DNA of 22,097 nucleotides from a virus. The notes beneath the pieces were generated by a model that was not told the DNA's origin, did not search any database, and saw nothing but the letters and a program-made list of their open reading frames with translations. Numbering within the stretch: the first letter of the stretch is position 1; each line of letters opens with the position of its first letter. This document shows positions 2,127 to 19,864 of this stretch, piece by piece. Made by a program: the position numbers and the translations under genes. Location of the stretch: positions 1-22,097 of IMG/VR virus record IMGVR_UViG_3300048597_000242. One strand, 5' to 3'.

Positions 2127-2547
2127 AGCTGGCCACCCCGGCGAGCGTCCGCGGGATCGCCTCGATCTCGCGCCGGTCGAACCGCGCGCAGCCCTCGATC
2201 GGGCAGCCGGCGGCGTACTGCATCAGGATCTGGCAGCGCGGGCAGTGCCCCTCGCCCTGCGCCAGACGCTTGCGCGGCGACCGCACCAGCCCCAGCTCCG
2301 CCGCGCGCAGCGCCGTGTCGCCCTTTGTGCGGTTCAGCCGGTGCGCGATCTTGCCCTCGGTCAAGGTCATGTCCGGCCACAGCGCCCGCAGCCTGGCGTC
2401 CTCGGCCTCGCTCCAGCCAACCGACGCAGCCGGCACCGTCGCGGCCGGCTTCTCCCGGCTGGACCGCGTGAGCGCCAGCGCAACAAGCCGGCGCTCGGCC
2501 GCGTTCATCCGGCCTGTCAGCGACGCGTCCTTCGCAGGGCCGGGCAT
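2119..2547 (-). CDS. GcrA/SANT-like DNA-binding protein with zinc knuckle
   Basis: A 142-aa protein. Residues about 44-90 ('WSEAEDARLRALWPDMTLTE' then '...GKIAHRLNRTKGDTALRAAELGL') have the layout of the N-terminal domain of GcrA, the alphaproteobacterial cell-cycle regulator: a Trp-led acidic helix, a short turn and a recognition helix followed by a 'LGL' end. The C-terminal part carries CPRC and CPIEGC groups, a likely zinc knuckle. Its ATG overlaps the upstream stop (TGATG), so it is coupled. True GcrA binds the housekeeping sigma factor and methylated GANTC sites; whether this phage version does is unknown. A plain SANT/Myb-like DNA-binding protein is the alternative. Confidence 0.7.
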   Translation of the reverse strand: MPGPAKDASLTGRMNAAERRLVALALTRSSREKPAATVPAASVGWSEAEDARLRALWPDMTLTEGKIAHRLNRTKGDTALRAAELGLVRSPRKRLAQGEGHCPRCQILMQYAAGCPIEGCARFDRREIEAIPRTLAGVASYG

Positions 2548-2879
2548 CAGCGGCGCCCGCCGTGGAATTCGGCGGCGCCAGGCCAGCCGGCCGGCGCCTG
2601 CGCCCCAACCTCCTGCGCCAGCGCCGCATAGCCCGCCAGGTCCACCGCGCTGTCCCGGTGCACGTAAAGCCGCTGCCGGGCCAGCTTCATGCCCGCCAGC
2701 ATCAGCAGCACCTCGCGCGCGGTGTAGGCCCGCCCGGTCAGCGCCTGCCAGATCAGCGCCACGGCGCCATAGGTGTCGGCCGCGTCGCCATACTGGTCGG
2801 CGCGGTCGCCATTGATCAGCGCCTCGGCCTCGCGCAGCACCGCCGCCCGCTCGTTCGCCTTCTTCAAGCGTTCACTCAT
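2547..2879 (-). CDS. DUF6378-type phage protein
   Basis: A 110-aa protein. It has the DUF6378 pattern: 'EAEALINGDRADQYGDAADTY' split over about residues 18-38, a middle helix with 'REVLLMLAGMKLARQ' and an 'HRDSAVDLAGYAALA' block near residues 74-88. The family is common in phage early regions and has no established activity; the HRDS-D-AGYAAL block with conserved acidic residues hints at a small helical fold that might bind nucleotide or metal, which is inference. The start overlaps the 3' end of the small membrane-peptide gene by 8 bases and the stop overlaps the GcrA-like start by one base. Confidence 0.8.
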   Translation of the reverse strand: MSERLKKANERAAVLREAEALINGDRADQYGDAADTYGAVALIWQALTGRAYTAREVLLMLAGMKLARQRLYVHRDSAVDLAGYAALAQEVGAQAPAGWPGAAEFHGGRR

Positions 2880-3005: not shown

Positions 3006-3488
3006 TCACTCGACCCGCCGCCGCCGCCGAACCTTCGCCATACCCGCGCGCTTTTGCGCCGCCTGCTGCAACACGCCGTCGATGCTGTCGCGCAGCGCCT
3101 CGAGCAGCGGCTGCAGCCGCGCCGCTTCCATGTGATCGATCCGGCCGTCGCGCAGCGCCTCGGCCATCGCCGCGCACAGCGCCGCGTTGTCGGCGTGCAC
3201 GTCGAGCAGGCTGGCGTCGTCGGTGTCGACGACGCGCAGCTCCATGCCGATCAGCCGGAACAGCCCGTTGCCGAACCCCGGCCCCAGCACGGCGATCAGC
3301 CGCAGCAGACGGTCGGCGGTCGGCAGCTGCCGGCCCTGCACATAGCTCTTGATGGTGCTCGCCCCGTCCCCCGTGGCGTCGGCCAGCTGCGCCGTGCTGT
3401 ATTTGCGCCCCTGGCCCACCAGCAGCCGCAGCGCGTCGGCCAGCGTCTCGCGGACGGTATCGGGGCTGAGCGCGCGCAATCCGGTCAT
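3006..3488 (-). CDS. HTH regulator, CII-like in position and length
   Basis: A 160-aa protein with a helix-turn-helix in residues about 10-60 ('KYSTAQLADATGDGASTIKS' followed by YVQGRQLPTADRLL). A much longer in-frame reading exists upstream, but it is the antisense-type GC-rich shadow of the overlapping gene; the ATG at 3488 overlaps that gene's stop by 4 bases (ATGA) and is the natural start. The C-terminal third is helical and ends in a basic 'KVRRRRRVE' tail. It lies two genes after cro in the rightward-type (PR) operon, the slot occupied by cII in λ, so it is a good candidate for a delayed-early activator; sequence similarity to CII itself is not claimed. Confidence 0.75.
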   Translation of the reverse strand: MTGLRALSPDTVRETLADALRLLVGQGRKYSTAQLADATGDGASTIKSYVQGRQLPTADRLLRLIAVLGPGFGNGLFRLIGMELRVVDTDDASLLDVHADNAALCAAMAEALRDGRIDHMEAARLQPLLEALRDSIDGVLQQAAQKRAGMAKVRRRRRVE

Positions 3489-3958: not shown

Positions 3959-4225
3959 CTATGCGGCCTCCGTGGCGGGGCTGGCGGGCGTGGCGCCGGT
4001 CTCGGGCTGCGGCACCGTGAAGAAATCTTCTGGCGCCAGGTCGATCAGCCCTTCGCGGGCCTTGTCCATCAGCCGGTGCTGCCACGACGCCGGGATCGGC
4101 TTGCCCTCGATCAGCAGCTGGTTCACTCGACTGCGATGCCGCTCGACAAGCGCCGCAACCGCGTCAATGCCGCCTAGCTTGCGGACCACGTGGAGTGACG
4201 GGGAAAGGGGATAGGTGCTTTTCAT
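3959..4225 (-). CDS. cro: Cro-like repressor
   Basis: An 88-aa protein starting MKSTYPLSPSLHVVRKLGGI. Residues about 12-45 form a Cro/YdaS-type helix-turn-helix ('GGIDAVAALVERHRSRVNQL'), followed by 'PASWQHRLMDKAREG', a usual C-terminal helix in such proteins, and a Pro/Thr/Ala-rich tail. It is the first gene of the leftward early operon and is divergent from cI, the classical Cro place. A longer reading upstream to 4321 would run through the operators and promoter, so ATG 4225 is chosen. No ribosome site precedes this ATG and the predicted transcription start is only two or three bases upstream, so the mRNA may be nearly leaderless. It should compete with CI for the same operators. Confidence 0.8.
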   Translation of the reverse strand: MKSTYPLSPSLHVVRKLGGIDAVAALVERHRSRVNQLLIEGKPIPASWQHRLMDKAREGLIDLAPEDFFTVPQPETGATPASPATEAA

Positions 4226-4233
4226 GCTGCAAG

Positions 4234-4261
4234 ATTGTGTGATTTCCACACACCCTGTCAA
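4234..4261 (-). promoter_or_regulatory. Early promoter PR for the cro operon
   Basis: On the minus strand a perfect -35 TTGACA (4256-4261) is followed after 16 bases by CACAAT (4234-4239), matching four of six -10 positions. Operator O1 fills the spacer and reaches the -10, so repressor binding would exclude RNA polymerase. The expected start point is near 4227. Confidence 0.75.
4236..4252. promoter_or_regulatory. Operator O1 (repressor palindrome)
   Basis: TGTGTGATTTCCACACA: 6-bp arms TGTGTG/CACACA with a 5-bp spacer. It lies inside PR. The same arms and spacing recur at 4295, 5563 and 5597, only in the immunity region promoters, which is the expected pattern for CI/Cro operators. Confidence 0.75.
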
Positions 4262-4294
4262 CAGCTTTCGAGTGGAATACGAACGTGCCCTGCG

Positions 4295-4311
4295 TGCGCG
4301 TTCCGCGCACA
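4295..4311. promoter_or_regulatory. Operator O2 (degenerate copy)
   Basis: TGCGCGTTCCGCGCACA keeps the TGYGYG-N5-CRCACA layout of O1 with arm changes. It ends 8 bases before the cI start codon, where binding could autoregulate cI. It can also be read as a 7-bp palindrome in a shifted register, so it is less certain than O1. Confidence 0.5.
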
Positions 4312-4319
4312 CTCCGCGC

Positions 4320-4997
4320 ATGGACGCTCAATGGTTCAAGAAACGCATGCGGGAATTGCGCGTCACCCAGGAGGACGTCGCGCGTCAACTGGGGCGTGAT
4401 CGTTCGATTGTCAGCCGCATCCTCACCGGCACCCAGCCCATGGGGCTGAAAGAGGCGCGCATTTTCTCCCAGATGCTGGACGTGCCATTAGGCGAGGTTC
4501 TGCGGCGGGCGGGTCAGCCTCTGACCGATCGTTTCGACGTCGAGCAGTTCGTGCCCGTCGAAATCGTCGGCACCGTCCAGGCCGGCATCTGGCGCGAAGC
4601 AGTCGAGCGCCCGGCCCCTGACGTGATGCCGATCTACGTCGAGCGCCCGCCGGGCGACGGGCGGCTGTTCGCGGTCGACGTGCGAGGGGATTCCATGGAC
4701 CTGGTGTTTCGCCAGGGCGAAACGCTGGTCTGCCAGCCGATCGACAGTTTCCCGGGCGAGTTGCGCAGCGGCCTGTTCGTCATCGTTGAGCGGCGCCGGC
4801 ACGACATCGTCGAGACGACGGTGAAGGAACTGGAAATCACCGACTCGGGATGGATTCTGTGGCCGAGGTCGAGCAACCCGGCGCACGTCAGGATCGACGT
4901 GGCGATGCACGGCGACAACGCCGACGAAACCAGCGAGATCCGCGTTACCGGCGTCGTGCTAAGCTCGCACCGTCGGCTGCTGCCCGGGTATCAGTAG
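4320..4997 (+). CDS. cI: CI-type prophage repressor with S24 self-cleavage domain
   Basis: A 225-aa repressor. Residues about 1-60 are a helix-turn-helix of the XRE type ('LRVTQEDVARQLGRDRSIVS'). The C-terminal half is a LexA/CI-like peptidase S24 domain: an Ala-Gly cleavage site at A88-G89 ('GTVQAGIW'), catalytic Ser125 in 'VRGDSMD' and Lys169 in 'ETTVKEL'. This predicts RecA-stimulated self-cleavage and SOS induction. The ATG at 4320 is preferred to an upstream in-frame ATG at 4215, which would span the operators. No ribosome site is seen before 4320, so the maintenance transcript may be leaderless as for λ cI. It is divergent from cro and converges with the lipoprotein gene, the stop codons overlapping by 7 bases. 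Confidence 0.9.
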   Translation: MDAQWFKKRMRELRVTQEDVARQLGRDRSIVSRILTGTQPMGLKEARIFSQMLDVPLGEVLRRAGQPLTDRFDVEQFVPVEIVGTVQAGIWREAVERPAPDVMPIYVERPPGDGRLFAVDVRGDSMDLVFRQGETLVCQPIDSFPGELRSGLFVIVERRRHDIVETTVKELEITDSGWILWPRSSNPAHVRIDVAMHGDNADETSEIRVTGVVLSSHRRLLPGYQ

Positions 4998-5497
4998 GTG
5001 GTATAGCGCAGCCGCGGTGCCGGGCGGACAGTGTTCATGGTGATGCCGTCGGCGATCATCTGCGGCTGGCGATGCGCCTCCCACAAGGCGCGCTCCCGCA
5101 TGTCCTCTTGTCCGGGCACCGGGTACAGCGCCACAGCAACGCCGCCGCCCGGATAGTGATTCAGACCGCCCGCCACCCAGTCCGTCGCGCCGATCGGCGG
5201 CACCCAGTAGGTCGCCGCGCCGGTGCGGCTGGTCACTGACGGCACGACCACGGTCTTTACCGCATAGCCCGGCGCCGAACAGGTGATGGTCAGCGGCTCG
5301 CGGCTCTTGCCCAGCGGAATGAACCCGCGCAGCCCGTAGGTCGAGGCGACCAGGTGGCCCTTCTGGGTCACGTCGCAGATCGCCGACGCGGTGTTGGTGT
5401 AGATCGGGATCGTCTGGTCCGTGCCCTCCATGACCGACGCGCACCCCTGCAGGGCGACTGCCGCCAGGACGATGCCGGCTACCTTGTTGCGTATCAT
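4991..5497 (-). CDS. Lipoprotein, probable lysogenic conversion gene
   Basis: A 168-aa protein with a clear type II signal peptide: MIRNKVAGIVLAAVALQGC, where C19 would be lipidated (lipobox LQGC). The mature part has a 'GTDQTIPIYTNTASAICDV' segment and later 'LTITCSAPGYAVKTVVV', a β-rich pattern with two cysteines (about 41 and 92) that could form a disulfide in the periplasm; this pattern occurs in a family of small bacterial lipoproteins of unknown function. It lies between cI and the left early promoter, the place where λ has the rex genes, and is transcribed against cI. That position, outside both repressed operons, suggests expression in the lysogen, for example as a surface or exclusion factor. 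Its own promoter is not identified. Confidence 0.8.
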   Translation of the reverse strand: MIRNKVAGIVLAAVALQGCASVMEGTDQTIPIYTNTASAICDVTQKGHLVASTYGLRGFIPLGKSREPLTITCSAPGYAVKTVVVPSVTSRTGAATYWVPPIGATDWVAGGLNHYPGGGVAVALYPVPGQEDMRERALWEAHRQPQMIADGITMNTVRPAPRLRYTTY

Positions 5498-5562
5498 CTT
5501 CTGCCCCCAACCCGTTGCACAAATGACTTGCCGAACACTAACACGAAGTGCCGTTTCTGATT

Positions 5563-5579
5563 TGTGCGTTTTTCACACT
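5563..5579. promoter_or_regulatory. Operator O3 (repressor palindrome)
   Basis: TGTGCGTTTTTCACACT, the same 6-5-6 layout as O1 with two arm changes. It lies upstream of the PL -35 box and may also cover the unidentified leftward promoter of the lipoprotein gene. Its centre is 34 bp from that of O4. Confidence 0.6.
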
Positions 5580-5587
5580 TTTTCTGT

Positions 5588-5615
5588 TTGACAAGATGTG
5601 TGTTTGGCACACATT
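5588..5615 (+). promoter_or_regulatory. Early promoter PL for the plus-strand operon
   Basis: -35 TTGACA (5588-5593), 16-base spacer, -10 CACATT (5610-5615; three of six consensus positions). Operator O4 occupies the spacer and -10 in exactly the register seen in PR. A leader of about 20 bases with a GGAGG ribosome site (5633-5637) leads to the ATG at 5643. Confidence 0.7.
5597..5613. promoter_or_regulatory. Operator O4 (repressor palindrome)
   Basis: TGTGTGTTTGGCACACA: arms identical to O1, spacer different. The conserved arms with an unrelated spacer argue for a protein-binding site rather than a copied sequence. Confidence 0.75.
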
Positions 5616-5642
5616 CTCAAGCCTCCACAACCGGAGGCCATC

Positions 5643-5894
5643 ATGTTTACCTTTCCGACTGACCTCGACTTCGCCCAGGCCCTGTCCGTCGCCGAGGCCG
5701 CCGCCGTGCTGTTCTCGCAGAAGATCGTCGAGACCACCGGCGAGCCCGCGCCCGGCGCCGTGCTGGTGCACGACCCGCACCTGGCGCTGCGCATCCTGCA
5801 GCAGGCCGCCCGCACCGCCGGCAACCCCCGCGTCAAGGCCGCTGCTTCCGTCGGATCGCCGCGTAGCCCACTACGGCGAAGCGGGGTCGCCTGA
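5643..5894 (+). CDS. First protein of the PL operon, unknown
   Basis: An 83-aa protein I do not recognise. The ATG at 5643 follows a GGAGG site by five bases and sits just downstream of PL; a longer reading from 5598 would start inside the operator and is rejected. Residues 9-60 look helical ('FAQALSVAEAAAVLFSQKIV'). The last residues, 'GSPRSPLRRSGVA', are encoded by a palindromic element (5859-5884), so the original C-terminus may have been replaced or extended by its insertion. The stop is followed after one base by the next ATG. By position it is the λ N slot, but no Arg-rich antiterminator motif is present. Confidence 0.7.
   Translation: MFTFPTDLDFAQALSVAEAAAVLFSQKIVETTGEPAPGAVLVHDPHLALRILQQAARTAGNPRVKAAASVGSPRSPLRRSGVA
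5859..5884. repeat. GNA-bulge palindrome, copy 1
   Basis: CCGC-GTA-GCC, loop CACTAC, GGC-GAA-GCGG: two stems separated by GTA facing GAA. It lies in the last codons of the gene at 5643. Confidence 0.6.
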
Positions 5895-6484: not shown

Positions 6485-6732
6485 AAGTCACTTTTACGGA
6501 CGTGCCGCTGTCGCACTTCGCCGGCCGCAACCCGCGCGGCGCGCTGATCCAGACCAAGCAGGGCAAGCGCATCCTCGCCATGGCCCAGCGGGCCATGGCC
6601 CTGGGCGGTTCCGTCCACGTGGAAACCCGGATCGATGATGCCTCCATGAAAACGAGCCGGGATCAGATCACCGGCACGGTCTACGAGCGCATCACCGCCA
6701 CCATCGACACCAGCCCGGAGCCTGCCGCATGA
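6481..6732 (+). CDS. Unknown 83-aa early protein
   Basis: Starts MKVTFTDVPLSHFAGRNPRG, with ATG overlapping the previous stop, and its own stop overlapping dnaN (ATGA in both cases). The middle ('GKRILAMAQRAMALGGSVHV') is helical and basic and the end has a β-like 'VYERITATIDTSP' segment. It could be a small DNA-associated protein because it is co-translated with the clamp gene, but there is no recognised motif. A longer reading from 6190 is an out-of-frame shadow of the previous gene. Confidence 0.7.
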   Translation: MKVTFTDVPLSHFAGRNPRGALIQTKQGKRILAMAQRAMALGGSVHVETRIDDASMKTSRDQITGTVYERITATIDTSPEPAA

Positions 6733-8009
6733 CCCGCACCGCCACCAAGGAAAGGCCGGCCACGCCCGGCGAAGCTCCCCCGGGGAGCGAAGCCGGGTTC
6801 GCATTCACCCTCCCCGCTGGCGCGTTCGCCGCCGCCGTCGGCAAGGCCTGCGCCGTGGTCTCCGGCCGGGTCACTATCCCGATCCTGTCGCATGCCCTGC
6901 TGCGGCTCGACGCGTTCGGCGTGCTGCACGTCATGGGCACCAATCTCGACCAGGTCGTCGAGGCGGCCGCGTCGACAACCCACAGGCATGTCGTCTCCGG
7001 CGCCATCACCGTGCCCGCGCTCGACCTCAAGGACGCGCTCGGCCATTTGAAGCCGGCCGAGGACGTGTCCGCCGTGCTTGACCCGAACCGTGCCCTGCTG
7101 GTGCTGAAGCAAGGCCGCACCACCTACAAGCTGCCGACGCTGCCGGCGGACGATTTCCCGCTGGTCGCCGAGATCGCCGGCAAGACCGCCGCCTTCGACG
7201 TCGACGCCGCCGCCCTGGCCGGCGCTCTCCGGCAGGTCGAGATGGCCGCCTCCACCGAGGAAGCCCGGTTCTACCTGAACGGCGTGTTCTTCGATTTCAA
7301 CGCGCCCGCGCCCGCGGCCGGAGCAACTTCCGTGCTGCTGGTCTCCACCGACGCCCACCGCCTGCACAAGGCCGCGCTGGCGCTGCCGGACGGCGCCCCG
7401 GCGCCAGATGCCGGTTTCTCCTTCATCCTGCCCAGCGCCGCCGTGCGGCCGCTGCTCGCCGCCTGCGACGGCCCCGCCGCCGGTCACCGCCTGTCGCTTA
7501 CCCTGGGCGGCGCCAAGCTGCGCATCGACGCGCCTGACGCCAAGGGCGGGCCGGTGGTGCTGACCACCAAGCTGATCGACGGCACCTTCCCCGACTGGCG
7601 ACGCGTGGTGCCGCAAGACCCGCCCAACCGGGTCGCCGCCGACCGCGACGAGCTGCTCGCCGCCGTCGAGCGGGTGGGCATCGTCCAGGGTGCCCAGATG
7701 AACAGCGACAACGCGAAAAGGCGCACGGCCGCCATCAAGCTGTCCTTCGCCGACGGCGAACTGCTGCTGTCCAACCGCGACCCGAATACCGGCGAGGAAG
7801 CCGACAGCGCCTGCGCCTGCTCGCTGCTCGCCGGCCACCCCGGCGAGGTCGGCTTCAACGCCGCCTACCTGGCCGCCGCCCTGCGCTCGTTCGGCGCCGC
7901 CGACAGCATCGAGATCGCCTGGACCGACGCCGGCGGACCGGCGCTGTTCACACGCCACGGCGCAGCCGGCGACGCCGACGCCCGCGTCGTCATGCCGATG
8001 CGGTTCTAG
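6729..8009 (+). CDS. dnaN: Phage-encoded DNA polymerase sliding clamp (DnaN homologue)
   Basis: A 426-aa protein that aligns by eye along the whole length of bacterial DNA polymerase III β: start of domain 1 'FAFTLPAGAF' with 'VTIPILSHALLRL' (about 48-60), 'YKLPTLPADDFP' at 133-144, the domain 2 'ARFYLNGVFFD' at 179-189, 'TTKLIDGTFPDWRRVVPQ' at 279-296 and the terminal 'VVMPMRF'. The terminal MPMR(L/F) contributes to the pocket that binds clamp partners, so it probably still binds polymerase. It is longer than E. coli DnaN (366 aa): an N-terminal extension of about 22 residues, partly encoded by a 33-bp palindrome, and extra loops around 190-200, 222-228 and 296-302. The ring encircles DNA and tethers polymerase; here it may recruit the host replicase to phage DNA. 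No clamp loader or polymerase is seen in the window. Confidence 0.93.
   Translation: MTRTATKERPATPGEAPPGSEAGFAFTLPAGAFAAAVGKACAVVSGRVTIPILSHALLRLDAFGVLHVMGTNLDQVVEAAASTTHRHVVSGAITVPALDLKDALGHLKPAEDVSAVLDPNRALLVLKQGRTTYKLPTLPADDFPLVAEIAGKTAAFDVDAAALAGALRQVEMAASTEEARFYLNGVFFDFNAPAPAAGATSVLLVSTDAHRLHKAALALPDGAPAPDAGFSFILPSAAVRPLLAACDGPAAGHRLSLTLGGAKLRIDAPDAKGGPVVLTTKLIDGTFPDWRRVVPQDPPNRVAADRDELLAAVERVGIVQGAQMNSDNAKRRTAAIKLSFADGELLLSNRDPNTGEEADSACACSLLAGHPGEVGFNAAYLAAALRSFGAADSIEIAWTDAGGPALFTRHGAAGDADARVVMPMRF
6765..6797. repeat. GNA-bulge palindrome, copy 3 (in dnaN)
   Basis: CCCGGC-GAA-GCTCCCC, one-base centre, GGGGAGC-GAA-GCCGGG: 13 perfect base pairs per side interrupted only by GAA facing GAA. 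It encodes 'PGEAPPGSEAG' in the extension before the conserved clamp sequence begins. Confidence 0.7.
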
Positions 8010-12553: not shown

Positions 12554-12595
12554 ATGGCGCCAATTGACAACCCGCCCCGATCGTCCGACCGTTAG
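12554..12595 (+). CDS. 13-aa leader peptide before the integrase (tentative)
   Basis: ATG 12554 follows a GGAGGGGGG site and encodes MAPIDNPPRSSDR, stopping at 12593-12595, four bases before the integrase ATG. The integrase itself has only a weak ribosome site, so translation of this short frame could feed ribosomes to it. It may be chance; the purine-rich site is the main support. In another frame, a tail-like 'VAQGLREALRVLAKVSAEGG' reading ends at the same place without any visible start. Confidence 0.3.
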   Translation: MAPIDNPPRSSDR

Positions 12596-12599
12596 GGCC

Positions 12600-14288
12600 A
12601 TGCCCACCGCCGCACCCCGCACCGCCGTCTACGCCCGCTACAGCACCGACCTGCAGCGCGACGCGTCGATCGAGGACCAGGTGCGCTCGTGCCGCCAGCT
12701 GCTCGCCCGCGAGGGCGTCACCGAATTCGAGACCTTCGCCGACCGGGCGATCTCCGGCGCGTCGATGATGCGCCCGGGCCTGCAGGCCCTGCTCGAGGCG
12801 GTGCGCGACGGCCGCGTCGACGTCATCGCCGCCGAGGGCATCGACCGCATCAGCCGCGACCAGGCCGACATCGCCGACATCGCCCGCACACTGCGCCACG
12901 CCGGCGTGCGCCTGCTGACCGTCCAGGAGGGCGAGGTCAACGAGTTGCATGTCGGGCTGAAGGGCACCATGAACGCCCTGTTCCTGAAGGACCTGGCCGC
13001 CAAGGTGCGCCGCGGCCTCGAGGGCCGGGTGCGCGCCGGCCGCTCCGGCGGCTCGCTCGGATACGGCTACCGCGTGGTGCAAGGCGCCGAGCGCGGCGGC
13101 CGCGCCATCGACCCGGCCGAGGCGCTGGTGGTCGAGCGGATCTTCAGGGACTACGCCGCCGGCGTCTCGCCGCGCGCCATCGCCCACGCGCTCAACCGCG
13201 AGGGCGCACCCGCCCCGTCCGGCGGCAGCTGGAACCAGTCCAGCATCAACGGCAATCGCCGCCGCGGCACCGGCATCCTCAACAACGAGCTTTATGTCGG
13301 CCGCCTTGTGTGGAACCGGCAGAGCTTCGTCAAGGACCCGGCCACCGGCCGCCGGGTTGGCCGCGAGAACCCGCCGGAGAAATGGGTGATCGAGCCGGCG
13401 CCGGACCTGCGCATCGTCGCCCAGGACGCCTGGGACGCGGTCAAAGCCCGCCAGGATGCCACCAGCACGAAGCGCGCGGGCGAGGCGCGCCACGCCAACA
13501 CCGGGCACCGCCTGGTGCGGGCCCGGCGGCCGAAGACGCTGCTGTCGGGGCTGGTGCGCTGCGGCTGCTGCGGCGGACCGATGGTCCGCGTCCACAGCGG
13601 CCGCATGGCATGCAACCGGGCGCGCGAGACGAAAAGCTGCGACAACCGGCTGCGCATCGACGGCGCCCAGCTCGAGCGTACCGTGCTCGCCGGCGTGCGC
13701 GCGAACCTGCTGGCCGCCGACACCTTCGAGGCATTCGCCCGCGCCTATCTCGACGAGGCCAACCGCATCGCCATGGAGGAGAACGTCGCCCGCGCCTCGG
13801 CCGGCGCCGAGCTCGCCACCGTGGTCCGCCAGCTCAACCAGCTGGTCGATCAGATCCTCGCCGGCACGCCCGGCAGGATCCTCGCCGAGCGCATCGAGCA
13901 GCTCGAGGAAAAGCGCACCGCGCTCGAGGCGCTGATCGCCCGCACGCCCGAGTCGCTGCCCTACGCCCACCCCAACCTGCCGGCCCGCTGGCGCGCCAAG
14001 ATCGAGGCCCTGAACGGGGGCCTCGCCGCCGGCGACATGGGGGCCACCGAGATCCTGCGCAGCCTGATCGACCGCGTCGACCTGGTGCCGGAGGGTGGCA
14101 AGCTGAGGATCGATCTGCATGGGGAAGTGGCGGGAATGCTGGCGTTTTGCGGCGAAGACCGCCCGCCAAGGCCGACACGAACCGGCCGCCTTATGGCTGG
14201 TTCCATATCGTTGGTAGCGGAGGAGCGCTGCCAACGATATAAACGGCTCGAATCCCTGGTGTTCCGCGACCTGCCGCTGGTAGCGTGA
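12600..14288 (+). CDS. int: Large serine recombinase (phage integrase)
   Basis: A 562-aa large serine recombinase. The catalytic domain (about 8-145) has the nucleophile Ser15 in 'YARYSTD', then 'DRAISGASMMRPGLQ' and 'EGIDRISRDQADIADI'. The Recombinase domain follows (about 160-275; 'LGYGYRVVQG', 'ALNREGAPAPSGGSW', 'NELYVGRLVWNR'), then a zinc ribbon with C321/C324 and C338/C347, and a coiled coil (about 405-450; 'RILAERIEQLEEKRTALEAL') used for synapsis and directionality. It would join attP to attB by double-strand cleavage and exchange. A TTG start at 12564 is possible; ATG 12600 is preferred from the alignment of the first strand. The last 50 residues have no domain and include a 36-bp dyad. 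No excisionase (RDF) gene is obvious nearby. Confidence 0.93.
   Translation: MPTAAPRTAVYARYSTDLQRDASIEDQVRSCRQLLAREGVTEFETFADRAISGASMMRPGLQALLEAVRDGRVDVIAAEGIDRISRDQADIADIARTLRHAGVRLLTVQEGEVNELHVGLKGTMNALFLKDLAAKVRRGLEGRVRAGRSGGSLGYGYRVVQGAERGGRAIDPAEALVVERIFRDYAAGVSPRAIAHALNREGAPAPSGGSWNQSSINGNRRRGTGILNNELYVGRLVWNRQSFVKDPATGRRVGRENPPEKWVIEPAPDLRIVAQDAWDAVKARQDATSTKRAGEARHANTGHRLVRARRPKTLLSGLVRCGCCGGPMVRVHSGRMACNRARETKSCDNRLRIDGAQLERTVLAGVRANLLAADTFEAFARAYLDEANRIAMEENVARASAGAELATVVRQLNQLVDQILAGTPGRILAERIEQLEEKRTALEALIARTPESLPYAHPNLPARWRAKIEALNGGLAAGDMGATEILRSLIDRVDLVPEGGKLRIDLHGEVAGMLAFCGEDRPPRPTRTGRLMAGSISLVAEERCQRYKRLESLVFRDLPLVA
14205..14240. repeat. 36-bp dyad at the 3' end of the integrase gene
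   Basis: Arms ATATCGTTGGTAGCG and CGCTGCCAACGATAT (15 bp, one mismatch) around GAGGAG. It lies within the last coding part of int. Size and imperfect symmetry suit a serine-integrase att site or a hairpin limiting transcription; there is no T-run, so it is not a classical terminator. Confidence 0.7.
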
Positions 14289-16183: not shown

Positions 16184-16600
16184 TCAGAATTCGTCGCAGC
16201 CGGCGATGCGGTAGGTCAGCCCGGTCATTTCCTCGTAGTCGGCCATCAGCGCGTTCAGCCGCCGCAGCGCGCCGGGCCTGATCGCCTCCATGTCGCCGCC
16301 GTCGATGCCGTCCAGCGCCGCGCACTGCTCGCGCCTGGCGTCGTACAGCTCGGCCGAGATCAGCCGCACCTCGATCCGCTTGGCCCGCGCGTCCAGCCGC
16401 GCCAGGTCGGCGGCGTTGGCGAATCCGGCCACCCAGGGCAGCATGCCGCAAGCCCACAATATGTGCACCGTCAGCACCGAGCCGATCGCCAGCACCACGT
16501 AGAACACCGCCCAGCGCCACGCCTGGCGCGTGTCCTCGTCGGCCGTGCGCTTCGGCGGCACGATCGAGCGCACCACGGGTATGAAGTCGATCGCCCCCAA
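16184..16600 (-). CDS. Membrane protein of the lysis region
   Basis: A 138-aa protein beginning at TTG 16600 (GAGGAGG site five bases upstream; no ATG fits). One strong transmembrane helix (about 30-52, 'WAVFYVVLAIGSVLTVHILW') and a second weaker hydrophobic stretch, followed by a helical charged domain ('LARLDARAKRIEVRLISAEL') and a short end with a cysteine. An inner-membrane anchor plus periplasmic coiled coil is the layout of an i-spanin, which would pair with the lipoprotein at 15282; an antiholin is the alternative. Assignment is by topology and position only. Confidence 0.65.
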   Translation of the reverse strand: MGAIDFIPVVRSIVPPKRTADEDTRQAWRWAVFYVVLAIGSVLTVHILWACGMLPWVAGFANAADLARLDARAKRIEVRLISAELYDARREQCAALDGIDGGDMEAIRPGALRRLNALMADYEEMTGLTYRIAGCDEF

Positions 16601-16623
16601 GCGGCCCTCCTCGTCAGGATGGA

Positions 16624-17109
16624 TTAATCCTTAAGCGCCGCGGCCAGGGCGCGCAGCGCGGCGCGCGTGCCCGGGTCCTTCACCTGCCCCAGCGCCGCCT
16701 CCACCCGGCTGCGCCGGGCTTCTTCCCGCTCGGCCTTCGGCAGGCGCTTGTCGATCCGCCGCAGCAGCGGCTTGAACGGCCAGCACTCGACGAACAGATG
16801 GTGGTTCTCGCCAGGCTTCAGCGCCAGCCGGCGCAGCCCTTTGCCACGCAGGCCGTGGAACAGCACCTCGGCATCCTCGGGCAACCCGTCCAGCACCAGT
16901 TCGCCGTCCTGCTCGCTGATCGTCACCGGCATGTCCGGCCGCTCGGCGCAGGTGATCCCCATCGGGTCGCTCATATGCGTGTCCGGGTGGCACTCGTCGG
17001 GCACCGGCCGCCAGGCGCAGTTGCCCGGCAGGTTCGGCAGCGTGCCGGCCGAGCTGCGCCGTGTCTCCAGGATCTGCCCGGTCGTGGTGTCGTAGATGGC
17101 GACTTTCAT
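16624..17109 (-). CDS. Late protein between tail tip and lysis genes, unknown
   Basis: A 161-aa protein, MKVAIYDTTTGQILETRRSS, with a β-rich first two thirds ('PVTISEQDGELVLDGLPEDA') and a charged helical end ('KRLPKAEREEARRSRVEAAL'). This place is often taken by tail-fibre or assembly proteins; the opening 'AIYDTTTGQIL' is like start regions of short phage tail-accessory proteins. No firm family. It is preceded by a spacer carrying a palindromic element. Confidence 0.65.
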   Translation of the reverse strand: MKVAIYDTTTGQILETRRSSAGTLPNLPGNCAWRPVPDECHPDTHMSDPMGITCAERPDMPVTISEQDGELVLDGLPEDAEVLFHGLRGKGLRRLALKPGENHHLFVECWPFKPLLRRIDKRLPKAEREEARRSRVEAALGQVKDPGTRAALRALAAALKD

Positions 17110-17133
17110 GAGGACCTCTTGTCCGGCTCGTCA

Positions 17134-17155
17134 CGCCGTAGCTTTAGCGAAGGCG
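17134..17155. repeat. GNA-bulge palindrome, copy 7
   Basis: CGCC-GTA-GC, loop TTTA, GC-GAA-GGCG, in the 50-base spacer between two late genes. Flanks match copy 8: CTCGTYACGCCGTAGC on the left and GCGAAGGCGGA on the right in both. Confidence 0.75.
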
Positions 17156-17159
17156 GAAG

Positions 17160-19439
17160 CTATCTCTTGATGACGAAGATGCGGGCCTGCAGGTTTGATG
17201 CCGTACCGGTCCAGCCCGCCTCCAGCGAGGTCACAGACAGCCGGTAGGTCGGATTGGCCGTGGCGATGTCCGGGTCGATGAACGGCACCACGTTGGACTG
17301 GTCGCCAAGTTCGTTGAACAGCACCGGCGCGCCCTGCAGCGGAAACTTGTCGCTCGGCCCCACGTCGACCCGCTGCACCCGGCACTGATAGGCCGTGCGG
17401 TCGCCAAAGCCGGTGCCGCCGATGGTGAACATGAACGTCACGTCGACGTCGTAGCCAGCCGGCGCGGTCACCGCCAGGTCCCACAGCGTCGTTGTGCCGC
17501 CCTCGGTCAGCGCCACCGTGGTCTTGTCGGTGCCGGTGTTGTCGGTCACCGCGTTCGGGTTGATCTGCGCCGTGTTGACGCTGTCGAGCACCGCCAGGTC
17601 GCCCTGGTTCAGGATCGTGCCGGCGATCGTCGTGTCGGTGATCGTCACGCTGCCGGACGTCGACCAGGCCGAGACCACGAAGGTGCTGTTGATGTGCGCC
17701 ACCCGCACCTTGTAGGTCGTACCCTTCACCAGGCCGGTGATGATCGCCCCGTCGCCGCTGCTTGCCGGCACCGTGCCATAGGGCAGCCAGGTGGTGCCGT
17801 TGTCCGGCGAAAGCTGCACGTCGCTCGAGATGATGAACGGGCTCGGGTCGGCCCATGTCACCTTGATCGCCGGGATCTTCGACCCGTCCGACCCGACGAA
17901 CGTCGCCGCCACTGCCGTCAGGCTGGCCGGCGCCGACAGGTCGAGCGGGATCGTCACCACCGGCCCACCGCCCGCCATCGCCGTGTAGCCGGCCTCGTGC
18001 GACGCCGCTGTCCAGGAATAGACCGCGCTGGCCTCTTCCTTGACGTCCAGGTCGATGGTGTAGGCATCGCCCTCGCTGTCGGGCGAGTTCAGCCGCCAGC
18101 CATGCACCCGCATCACCTTTGACGACCACGAGAAGCTGCCGTGCGTCACCTGGATCGTGTCCCACACCCGGATGTCGAGGCCCTTCAGGTTGACCCGGAT
18201 GGTGCCCGAGCCCCGCTGGCGCGCCTGGTTCTTGGCGATGCGCGCGATCCGCTGCGCCATCCGGTGGTCGGTGGTGAACGGCAGGTCGAGCGTCAGCCAG
18301 AATATCTCGCCGCCGTCCTCGGTCACCGCCGTCGAGTCGGTCACGACCGGGTAGTCGGCCGGCTGGTAGGCGTTGCCGGTGTCGATGAACAGGCCCTTGA
18401 CCTGGTTCGCCAGCTCGCGCCGCGACGGCGCCTTCTTCCACTCCACCGAGACGATGTCGCCTTCGGTGAACGTCGCCGCCGGGCTGTCATAGGCGCCCGG
18501 ATGGAACCGGAACACCCCGCCCGAGAACGTCAGCGTGCCCGCCATCGAGCGGGTCATCAAATCCATCACCTCCTCGTGCGACATCGACGAGTTGATGATC
18601 GCATTCACCGAGTAGCGCAGGATCGTCCCGCCGCCGGTTACCGAGACCGTCTCGTCGCAGATGTTCGCCGCCGCCTGGATGTTGGCCATGTCGAAGGCGC
18701 TCAGCGGGAAGCCCGGGCCGAGATAGCTGTCGCGCAGATAGTCCAGCGCGCACAACACCGGGTTGACGCTCCACGCCCAGGTCGATTCCGTCGCCGCCCG
18801 GTGCGAGCCGGACCCGCCGGACACCGTGCTGTCCAGCCGTGGATCGTAGACCTTCTTGCCCTTGACCAGCACCGAGATGTTGGGCAGGCCGGTCGGATAG
18901 ACGTCCCGGTCGAACAGCAGCCGGTGCACCTGGTAGGCGCAGCCGCGCAGCCGGTGGTTGCTGGTCCAGCGGCTCGAGGCCGCGTCGAGGGTGGCGTCGA
19001 CGGTCTGCGAGGCGGCGCCCAGGTGCTCGTAGCGCCAGGCGAAATTCGGATAGGGCGCCGTCGTCGCCGCGTTCGACGAGAACGCGATCAGCTCGTCGTT
19101 GTAGTAGACCCCCTGGAAGCTGTCGATCTCGTGGTCGGCGTAGACGTTGACCAGCCAGACGTTCTCGTTGTCGGTGCCGGTGCTTTCCACATAGACGATG
19201 GTGCCGCCGGTCCGGCGCAGGCCGTAGATGTACTCCCGCGGCGCCGCCGGATCGCGGCTCATGTTGATGACCGTGCCCTGGTCCCCGGCATTGTAGCCGC
19301 CGGCAATCAGCTTGCCGATGGTGTTGACCAGGAAGCCGCTCACGGCGGTGACCACGATCCCGGCGATGATCCCGGCCGTGGCCGCGCCGATGCCGATATT
19401 CACCAGAGCAGCGGCGACGAACGCGACGACCGGCGGCAT
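17160..19439 (-). CDS. Tail-tip / host-specificity protein (λ gpJ-like)
   Basis: A 759-aa protein. The start at ATG 19439 overlaps the previous stop (TGATG); a longer reading is out-of-frame shadow. Residues 4-45 are hydrophobic ('VVAFVAAALVNIGIGAATAG'), then 'YIYGLRRTGGTIVYVESTG' and 'VYADHEIDSFQGVYYND', the opening usual in gpJ/TipJ proteins. The middle has the hub-like parts ('VSVEWKKAPSRRELANQVKG'), and about 500-600 form a fibronectin type III domain ('PASLTAVAATF...IKVTWAD...GTTYKVRVAHINS'). The final 150 residues are β-rich and variable in type, a likely receptor-binding end. Shorter than λ gpJ (about 1130 aa). Confidence 0.85.
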   Translation of the reverse strand: MPPVVAFVAAALVNIGIGAATAGIIAGIVVTAVSGFLVNTIGKLIAGGYNAGDQGTVINMSRDPAAPREYIYGLRRTGGTIVYVESTGTDNENVWLVNVYADHEIDSFQGVYYNDELIAFSSNAATTAPYPNFAWRYEHLGAASQTVDATLDAASSRWTSNHRLRGCAYQVHRLLFDRDVYPTGLPNISVLVKGKKVYDPRLDSTVSGGSGSHRAATESTWAWSVNPVLCALDYLRDSYLGPGFPLSAFDMANIQAAANICDETVSVTGGGTILRYSVNAIINSSMSHEEVMDLMTRSMAGTLTFSGGVFRFHPGAYDSPAATFTEGDIVSVEWKKAPSRRELANQVKGLFIDTGNAYQPADYPVVTDSTAVTEDGGEIFWLTLDLPFTTDHRMAQRIARIAKNQARQRGSGTIRVNLKGLDIRVWDTIQVTHGSFSWSSKVMRVHGWRLNSPDSEGDAYTIDLDVKEEASAVYSWTAASHEAGYTAMAGGGPVVTIPLDLSAPASLTAVAATFVGSDGSKIPAIKVTWADPSPFIISSDVQLSPDNGTTWLPYGTVPASSGDGAIITGLVKGTTYKVRVAHINSTFVVSAWSTSGSVTITDTTIAGTILNQGDLAVLDSVNTAQINPNAVTDNTGTDKTTVALTEGGTTTLWDLAVTAPAGYDVDVTFMFTIGGTGFGDRTAYQCRVQRVDVGPSDKFPLQGAPVLFNELGDQSNVVPFIDPDIATANPTYRLSVTSLEAGWTGTASNLQARIFVIKR

Positions 19440-19864
19440 CAGCCCACCCGCCAGGCGAACCTGGCCCCGGTCGTCGGCAGCCGGATCGGCCCCTCCGCGC
19501 CCGGCCCGACGCATTCGGCGCCTATGCAGGTCAGCAGCGTCGGCCCGAGCGCCGTCACCGCCAGCACCGGGTCGCCCCGCCGCGCCATGGCGGGCGCCGC
19601 CGGCTTGCCGAACTTGCGCGCCATGGTGTGATAGAGCGAGCCGGCGCCGATTTCCTTCAGCGCCGCCGACGCCGACGCCGCGTCATGGTACTGCCCGCGA
19701 AACTCCGCCATCGGGTCCGCGCCGGTCATCGCCTTGCAATGGTCCGACCATGCCGTGGTGCAGTCATGCTTGCCCCAGCGGAAGGTTTTTCCGGCCTGCG
19801 CCTCGATCGAGGCCGCCAGCCGCTCCGGCCAATCTTCCCGGCGGGTGATGGCTTTCCGGGTCAT
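19439..19864 (-). CDS. DUF6950 / NlpC-like tail protein
   Basis: A 141-aa protein with 'FRWGKHDCTTAWSDHCKAMT' at 28-47 (C35 in the NlpC/P60 nucleophile position), 'HTMARKFGKP' and 'ARRGDPVLAV' further on. This is the DUF6950 pattern. It stands in the slot of λ gpK or the gene transfer agent cell-wall peptidase. A catalytic His after the GD motif is not visible, so it may be an inactive or divergent form. Overlaps by 4 bases with the previous gene and 1 base with the next. Confidence 0.8.
   Translation of the reverse strand: MTRKAITRREDWPERLAASIEAQAGKTFRWGKHDCTTAWSDHCKAMTGADPMAEFRGQYHDAASASAALKEIGAGSLYHTMARKFGKPAAPAMARRGDPVLAVTALGPTLLTCIGAECVGPGAEGPIRLPTTGARFAWRVG

What the first reader, a model, noticed from the sequence alone, without database searches (positions are those of the whole stretch)
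4234..5615. Two opposite early promoters built from one promoter/operator module
PR (4234-4261, minus) and PL (5588-5615, plus) both read TTGACA, three bases, TGTGTG, five variable bases, CACACA, then AT or TT. The operator sits in the same register in both, covering spacer and -10. The 5-bp spacers are unrelated, so arms and promoter boxes are conserved by function. Two weaker copies lie at 4295 and 5563. This predicts tight, simultaneous CI control of both arms, as in λ, with a new operator sequence TGTGYG-N5-CRCACA.
Basis: seen in the sequence. Interest (0 to 1): 0.65.

Follow-up and report, generated by a model that had tools for sequence, protein, structure and literature searches.

The report
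Lambda-like switch with leaderless cro
This fragment of a temperate bacterial virus, probably an alphaproteobacterial phage, carries a lambda-type on/off switch: the same repressor-binding site is built into both opposed early promoters, and its relatives keep the exact spacing although their binding sequences differ, so most of this is classic lambda design with a few new geometric details.

Summary
TTGACA-N3-TGTGTG-N5-CACACA-WT occurs only at 4234-4261(-) and 5588-5615(+), never in shuffles. The two sites flank a 225-aa HTH+S24 repressor (CI), with an 88-aa Cro divergent from it: a mirror image of the lambda immunity region. Lambda has the same register (4 nt instead of 3 between -35 and operator), so the promoter/operator design is not new.

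Comparison with about 34 non-redundant relatives of the Cro shows more. (1) Operator arms change between phages, but the register, and within a phage the PL/PR match, are kept. (2) OR1-OR2 is 33 bp and OL1-OL2 is 34 bp, against 24 in lambda: about one helical turn more. The 5563 copy is OL2, exactly 34 bp away. (3) The -35 lies 35-37 nt before the cro ATG in 29/34, with no Shine-Dalgarno in 32/34, so cro is predicted leaderless. CI also appears leaderless, with OR2 near -42. (4) Operator similarity tracks the recognition helices of both CI and Cro beyond overall relatedness, so both probably bind it.

It is a new variant of a known kind. Binding, transcription starts and the window's weak OR2/OR3 are inferred. 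The record is a 22-kb fragment.

The parts
4234..4261 (-). PR: -35 TTGACA (4261-4256), -10 CACAAT (4239-4234), 16-bp spacer
   Evidence: -35 first T is 36 nt before the cro ATG, as in 29/34 relatives at 35-37
4236..4252 (.). OR1, TGTGTG-ATTTC-CACACA
   Evidence: centre 19 nt before the cro ATG (relatives 17-20)
4269..4285 (.). candidate degenerate OR2, CGAGTG-GAATA-CGAACG, centre +33 from OR1 and 43 nt before the CI ATG
   Evidence: position predicted by relatives; 8/12 match, a level met by 0.4% of window positions
   Evidence: relatives have OR3 at +56 to +60
4308..4313 (+). weak PRM -10-like CACACT, 6 nt before the CI ATG (inferred)
   Evidence: inference from the lambda-like geometry
4320..4997 (+). 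cI repressor, 225 aa: HTH (recognition helix RDRSIVSRIL) plus Peptidase_S24, A-G at 88-89, GDSM with Ser at 125, Lys at 169
3959..4225 (-). cro-like gene, 88 aa, predicted HTH, relative of carph-isopro domain proteins; ATG at the expected transcription start
3006..3488 (-). third gene of the PR operon, HTH, weakly CII-like (160 aa)
   Evidence: phrog_101, E 3e-4; phrog_16695, 1.3e-7
5588..5615 (+). PL: -35 TTGACA (5588-5593), -10 CACATT (5610-5615)
5597..5613 (.). OL1, TGTGTG-TTTGG-CACACA
5563..5579 (.). OL2, TGTGCG-TTTTT-CACACT, centre 34 bp upstream of OL1
   Evidence: same 34-bp spacing in L008 and 31-35 bp in 14 of 16 phages
5643..5894 (+). first gene of the PL operon, 83 aa, unknown; has leader and Shine-Dalgarno GGAGG (5633-5637)

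Best explanation
This is a lambda-type immunity region. A CI-like repressor (HTH plus S24 self-cleavage domain) and a small Cro-like protein read the same 17-bp operator. In each early promoter the operator fills the spacer and overlaps the -10 box, so a bound dimer blocks RNA polymerase; occupancy of OR1 and OL1 shuts off the cro arm and the PL arm together. Each promoter has further operators about one helical turn further apart than in lambda (OR1-OR2 33, OL1-OL2 34 bp), suited to side-by-side cooperative binding. OR2 would sit near -42 of a weak PRM for CI self-activation, and OR3 would cover PRM for CI shut-off. cro, and probably cI, are predicted to be read from leaderless mRNAs starting at or within about 2 nt of the AUG, while the PL gene has a normal leader with Shine-Dalgarno. 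Shown: sites, register, spacing, conservation, gene families. Inferred: binding, cooperativity, activation, transcription starts.
For: Exact unique pair. CI = Peptidase_S24 41.3 bits (cutoff 23.3) with HTH, PHROG repressor 5.5e-23, A-G/Ser/Lys aligned with lambda CI and P22 C2. Lambda has the same register at PR and PL. Of 34 non-redundant relatives (window included), 29 have TTGxxx (>=4/6) 35-37 nt before the cro ATG, other 3-nt bins 0-4; 32 lack a Shine-Dalgarno, and the 2 that have one (L053, L054) lack the module. PL copy matching the phage's own PR operator in 13/14 loci with >=2.6 kb beyond CI. OR2 at 32-35 in 20/27, OR3 at 56-60 in 18/27, OL2 at 31-35 in 14/16. CI ATG 41-43 nt from OR2 in 21/25; lambda 42. 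Operator similarity correlates with the recognition helix of CI (partial r 0.43) and Cro (0.62), 0 of 2000 permutations each.
Against: No binding or RNA data. In the window itself OR2 and OR3 are weak by sequence. The -10 boxes are poor matches to TATAAT (4/6 and 3/6) with a 16-bp spacer, although the sigma-70 -10 region is reported as poorly conserved in the alphaproteobacterium S. meliloti (PMC3616915). Partial Mantel tests do not fully remove shared ancestry. The window Cro scores below the NCBIfam cutoff and its model has only weak fold matches. No close relative of the window was found, so its own sites could not be compared with near relatives.
Confidence: 0.88

Rival explanations
1. The palindromes are sites for a host regulator of the CRP/FNR kind (TGTGA-N6-TCACA-like) that couples the early promoters to host state, rather than CI/Cro operators.
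For: TGTG...CACA half-sites resemble the CRP consensus (own knowledge).
Against: In relatives the same position holds quite different palindromes (TCGCGA, GTAGCGA, TATGCGA, ATTACA) that match between PL and PR of one phage and follow the recognition helices of that phage's CI and Cro. A host factor would not change site from phage to phage.
Confidence: 0.04
2. Only one of the two proteins uses these sites: CI binds the operators while the Cro-like protein acts elsewhere, or the reverse.
For: In PY54 Cro binds a single operator and does not repress its own synthesis (PMC4488713). The window Cro is only weakly assigned.
Against: Both recognition helices track the operator, Cro more strongly; window and L008 share HRSRVN in Cro and TGTGYG arms at only 37% overall identity.
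Confidence: 0.15
3. The two promoters are alike because of a recent duplication of one promoter, with no shared repression needed.
For: Two 28-bp elements share the whole -35 box and both operator arms.
Against: The 5-bp centres, the 3-bp link and all flanks differ; the pair is present at both places in 13/14 relatives with different arms, so the match is maintained, not inherited from one copying event.
Confidence: 0.02

Closest known systems
Bacteriophage lambda immunity region (OR/OL, CI, Cro, PR, PL, PRM)
   Same: Divergent cI/cro, second operator region beyond cI, 17-bp operator filling spacer and -10 just after TTGACW at both PR and PL, weaker operators beside each, OR2 42-43 nt before the cI AUG, leaderless cI.
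   Different: 3 instead of 4 nt between -35 and operator; OR1-OR2 33 and OL1-OL2 34 instead of 24 bp; OL with two, not three, recognisable sites; cro leaderless (OR1 centre to ATG 19, lambda 35); different operator sequence and an unrelated-looking Cro; a lipoprotein gene on the opposite strand where lambda has rexAB.
Telomere phages PY54 / N15 / phiKO2 immB
   Same: N15 CB binds three OR sites and two OL sites; in PY54 both cI and cro mRNAs were shown by RACE to be leaderless (PMC4488713); the window Cro model weakly resembles N15 and Xfaso 1 Cro.
   Different: PY54 Cro binds one site, up to 40 bp from the cro promoter, and does not control its own promoter; in the window family the operator is inside the cro promoter.
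Alphaproteobacterial prophages with carph-isopro-type Cro (L006-L026, L031-L046; e.g. Aquamicrobium defluvii, Rhizobium sp.)
   Same: Same register, leaderless cro, operator spacings and PL copy.
   Different: Most have TYGCGA-N3-TCGCRA operators; only L008 and L043 share the TGTGYG arms; many have stronger OR2 and OR3 than the window's.

Membership tests
Lambda-type immunity region | cI and cro divergent with an operator region between them | tested here: met
Lambda-type immunity region | second operator region with an opposed early promoter on the far side of cI carrying the same operator | tested here: met
Lambda-type immunity region | operator occupies spacer and -10 of PR and PL in the lambda register | tested here: met
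   (centre 17 against 18 nt from the first T of the -35)
Lambda-type immunity region | three OR sites | tested here: inconclusive
   relatives yes; in the window OR2 and OR3 are degenerate but in place
Lambda-type immunity region | CI and Cro bind the operators and repress PR and PL | not testable with these tools
   indirect only: recognition helices follow operator
S24 (LexA/CI-type) phage repressors | HTH plus Peptidase_S24 with A-G cleavage site, Ser and Lys | tested here: met
   (41.3 against cutoff 23.3 bits)
NCBIfam NF046037 carph-isopro domain | score above curated cutoff (38 bits) | tested here: not met
   18.7 bits, E 0.0015; related to proteins nearer the family, not filed as a member

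The most novel reading that the evidence does not exclude
A widespread alphaproteobacterial form of the lambda switch in which -35, operator, -10 and AUG form one rigid module of about 36 nt at cro, mirrored by a similar operator-to-AUG spacing at cI. Both regulators are made from leaderless mRNAs, operator pairs sit one helical turn further apart than in lambda, and operator arms diversify together with the CI and Cro recognition helices.
Probability: 0.7. Interest if true: 0.55.

Novelty: new variant of a known kind. Interest (0 to 1): 0.45.

Why it matters
It gives a natural series of some thirty lambda-like switches with fixed geometry and varying operator letters, each with its own CI and Cro. 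That makes the coupling between recognition helix and operator, and the tolerance of cooperative spacing (24 against 34 bp), directly testable. If cro and cI are both leaderless, translation of the two switch proteins would bypass Shine-Dalgarno initiation while the PL operon does not, which could tie the lysis-lysogeny choice to ribosome state. For the window alone it is an ordinary immunity region with a new specificity.

Tried and rejected
No DNA relative among 50,697 phage records for the immunity region or a 3-kb stretch further along, 16600-19600. The strict 28-mer pattern found nothing in viral contigs; a relaxed one found 14 stretches, of which only L068 (= L008) and L069 were recognised as immunity regions, while L061, L064, L065, L067, L070, L071 and L073 share one repeated stretch that looks like coding sequence. 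CI homologues L003-L005 were too distant to use in the survey; L005 shows a similar palindrome after TTGACG, read by eye only. No solved structure matches CI by sequence; the Cro profile hits in the PDB are not meaningful. The first orf83 searches used a frame shifted by one base, as did; they were repeated correctly for Pfam and PHROGs, but not for NCBIfam. CRP-like host site, duplication and chance were considered and rejected (see rivals). L040, L042, L053 and L054 do not fit the full module and were kept in the counts.

Full report
Observation. No other match with up to 3 mismatches exists in the window and none in shuffles. The operator alone, with no mismatch, occurs only at these two places. 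Against the strict consensus the 5563 copy (2 mismatches) stands out, while the 4295 copy (3 mismatches) does not do so by sequence. It is nevertheless a strong inverted repeat, GTGCGCG-TTC-CGCGCAC, centred on 4302.

Setting. The record is a 22,097-base viral fragment. Between the two promoters lies a 225-aa repressor with HTH and Peptidase_S24 domains; the A-G cleavage pair and the Ser and Lys residues align with lambda CI and P22 C2. The minus-strand promoter reads into an 88-aa protein that AlphaFold models as a helical HTH protein (pLDDT 76), with weak fold matches to the Xfaso 1 and N15 Cro proteins. It is a weak relative of NCBIfam carph-isopro. Two genes further on is an HTH protein weakly like CII. 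This is the lambda gene order in mirror image.

Lambda itself. In the annotated lambda record OR1 and OL1 begin 4 nt after TTGACT and TTGACA and run through the spacer into the -10.

Relatives. Cro homologues were found in viral contigs, GTDB genomes and 782 genomes sampled around one of them, giving 34 non-redundant upstream regions including the window. In 29 of 34 a TTGxxx hexamer with at least 4/6 matches stands 35-37 nt before the cro ATG; every other 3-nt bin has 0-4. Palindrome centres peak 17-20 nt before the ATG. A Shine-Dalgarno run is absent in 32 of 34, and the two loci that have one (L053, L054) are loci without the module. With a -35 starting about 36 nt before the AUG, transcription should begin at or within about 2 nt of the AUG. 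Leaderless cro and cI mRNAs have been shown by RACE in PY54 (PMC4488713), and leaderless genes starting exactly at AUG are mapped in Sinorhizobium meliloti (PMC3616915).

Both arms. In 13 of 14 loci with at least 2.6 kb of sequence beyond CI, a -35 plus an operator matching the phage's own OR1 lies on the far side of CI in the PL direction, scoring above all 40 shuffles. L025's hit has a poor -35, and L017 has none. L008 is the most telling: PR TTGACA-GTA-TGTGCGATTTCGGCACA, PL TTGACC-CAT-TGTGCGATTTGCGCACA, and a second OL site 34 bp upstream, the same 34 bp as in the window. L043 also has TGTGCG arms at OR1, and an unrelated phage, L069, has TGTGCG-N5-CGCACA at two places with an XRE-type Cro.

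Geometry. Secondary sites that match each phage's own operator at 9/12 or better lie at 32-35 (20 of 27) and 56-60 (18 of 27) from OR1, and at 31-35 upstream of OL1 (14 of 16). Lambda has 24 and 47 at OR and 24 at OL. The added distance is about 10 bp, one helical turn, so neighbouring dimers would keep the same face (inference). The CI ATG is 41-43 nt from OR2 in 21 of 25 loci; lambda has 42. In one search the OR2 position was chosen within a 6-nt window; among the 13 loci with an OR2 match of at least 10/12, 10 lie at 42-43. In the window OR2 (4269-4285) is degenerate but lies at exactly +33, and 43 nt from the CI ATG; OR3 lies 17-18 nt before the CI ATG.

Who binds. Over 24 loci, similarity of operator half-sites correlates with similarity of the recognition helix of CI (partial r 0.43) and of Cro (0.62) after removing similarity of the rest of the protein; 0 of 2000 permutations reach either value. 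GTAGCGA operators go with HRTRVSNW in Cro, TYGCGA mostly with KHVSRVYRW, and TGTGYG in the window and L008 with HRSRVN. Partial Mantel tests can be too generous with related sequences, so this is strong support, not proof.

PL side. The first PL gene (83 aa, 5643-5894) has a leader and GGAGG. Seven phages (L006, L009, L013, L018, L031, L034 and the window) have a start codon with a Shine-Dalgarno within about 60 nt of the -35; in others the first gene is unclear. The contrast of leaderless regulators with a leadered PL operon is suggestive only.

Conclusion. What is added is that the module belongs to a conserved, apparently undescribed alphaproteobacterial version of the lambda switch. No paper was found for this Cro family, but the paper library lacks most subscription journals. 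Binding and transcription remain to be shown.

Noticed in passing
window 4991-5497 (-): 168-aa ORF with a lipoprotein signal (LQGC), convergent with cI and in the place of lambda rexAB; no Pfam family, only a weak PHROG match. A possible lysogenic-conversion or exclusion gene.
   Followed up: partly
window 6729-8009 (+): Phage-encoded DNA polymerase III beta clamp homologue with all three domains, downstream of PL on the same strand.
   Followed up: no
window 12564-14288 (+): Large serine recombinase (Resolvase, Recombinase, zinc ribbon), a probable integrase, at the far end of the PL-direction genes.
   Followed up: no
L069 1-1500: A different phage with TGTGCG-N5-CGCACA operators in the same register (TTGACT-AAA-operator-AT, ATG 37 nt from the first T of the -35) but with an XRE-type Cro and a short repressor without an obvious S24 domain: the same module with unrelated proteins.
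   Followed up: partly
relatives L034, L038, L039: CI proteins with a longer loop before the recognition helix (DRAAVNKM type) go with GTAGCGA operators and HRTRVSNW in Cro, an apparent co-specialised subgroup.
   Followed up: partly
window 2547-2879 (-): 110-aa protein matching PHROG families labelled phosphofructokinase (1e-21); the label looks doubtful for so small a protein.
   Followed up: no
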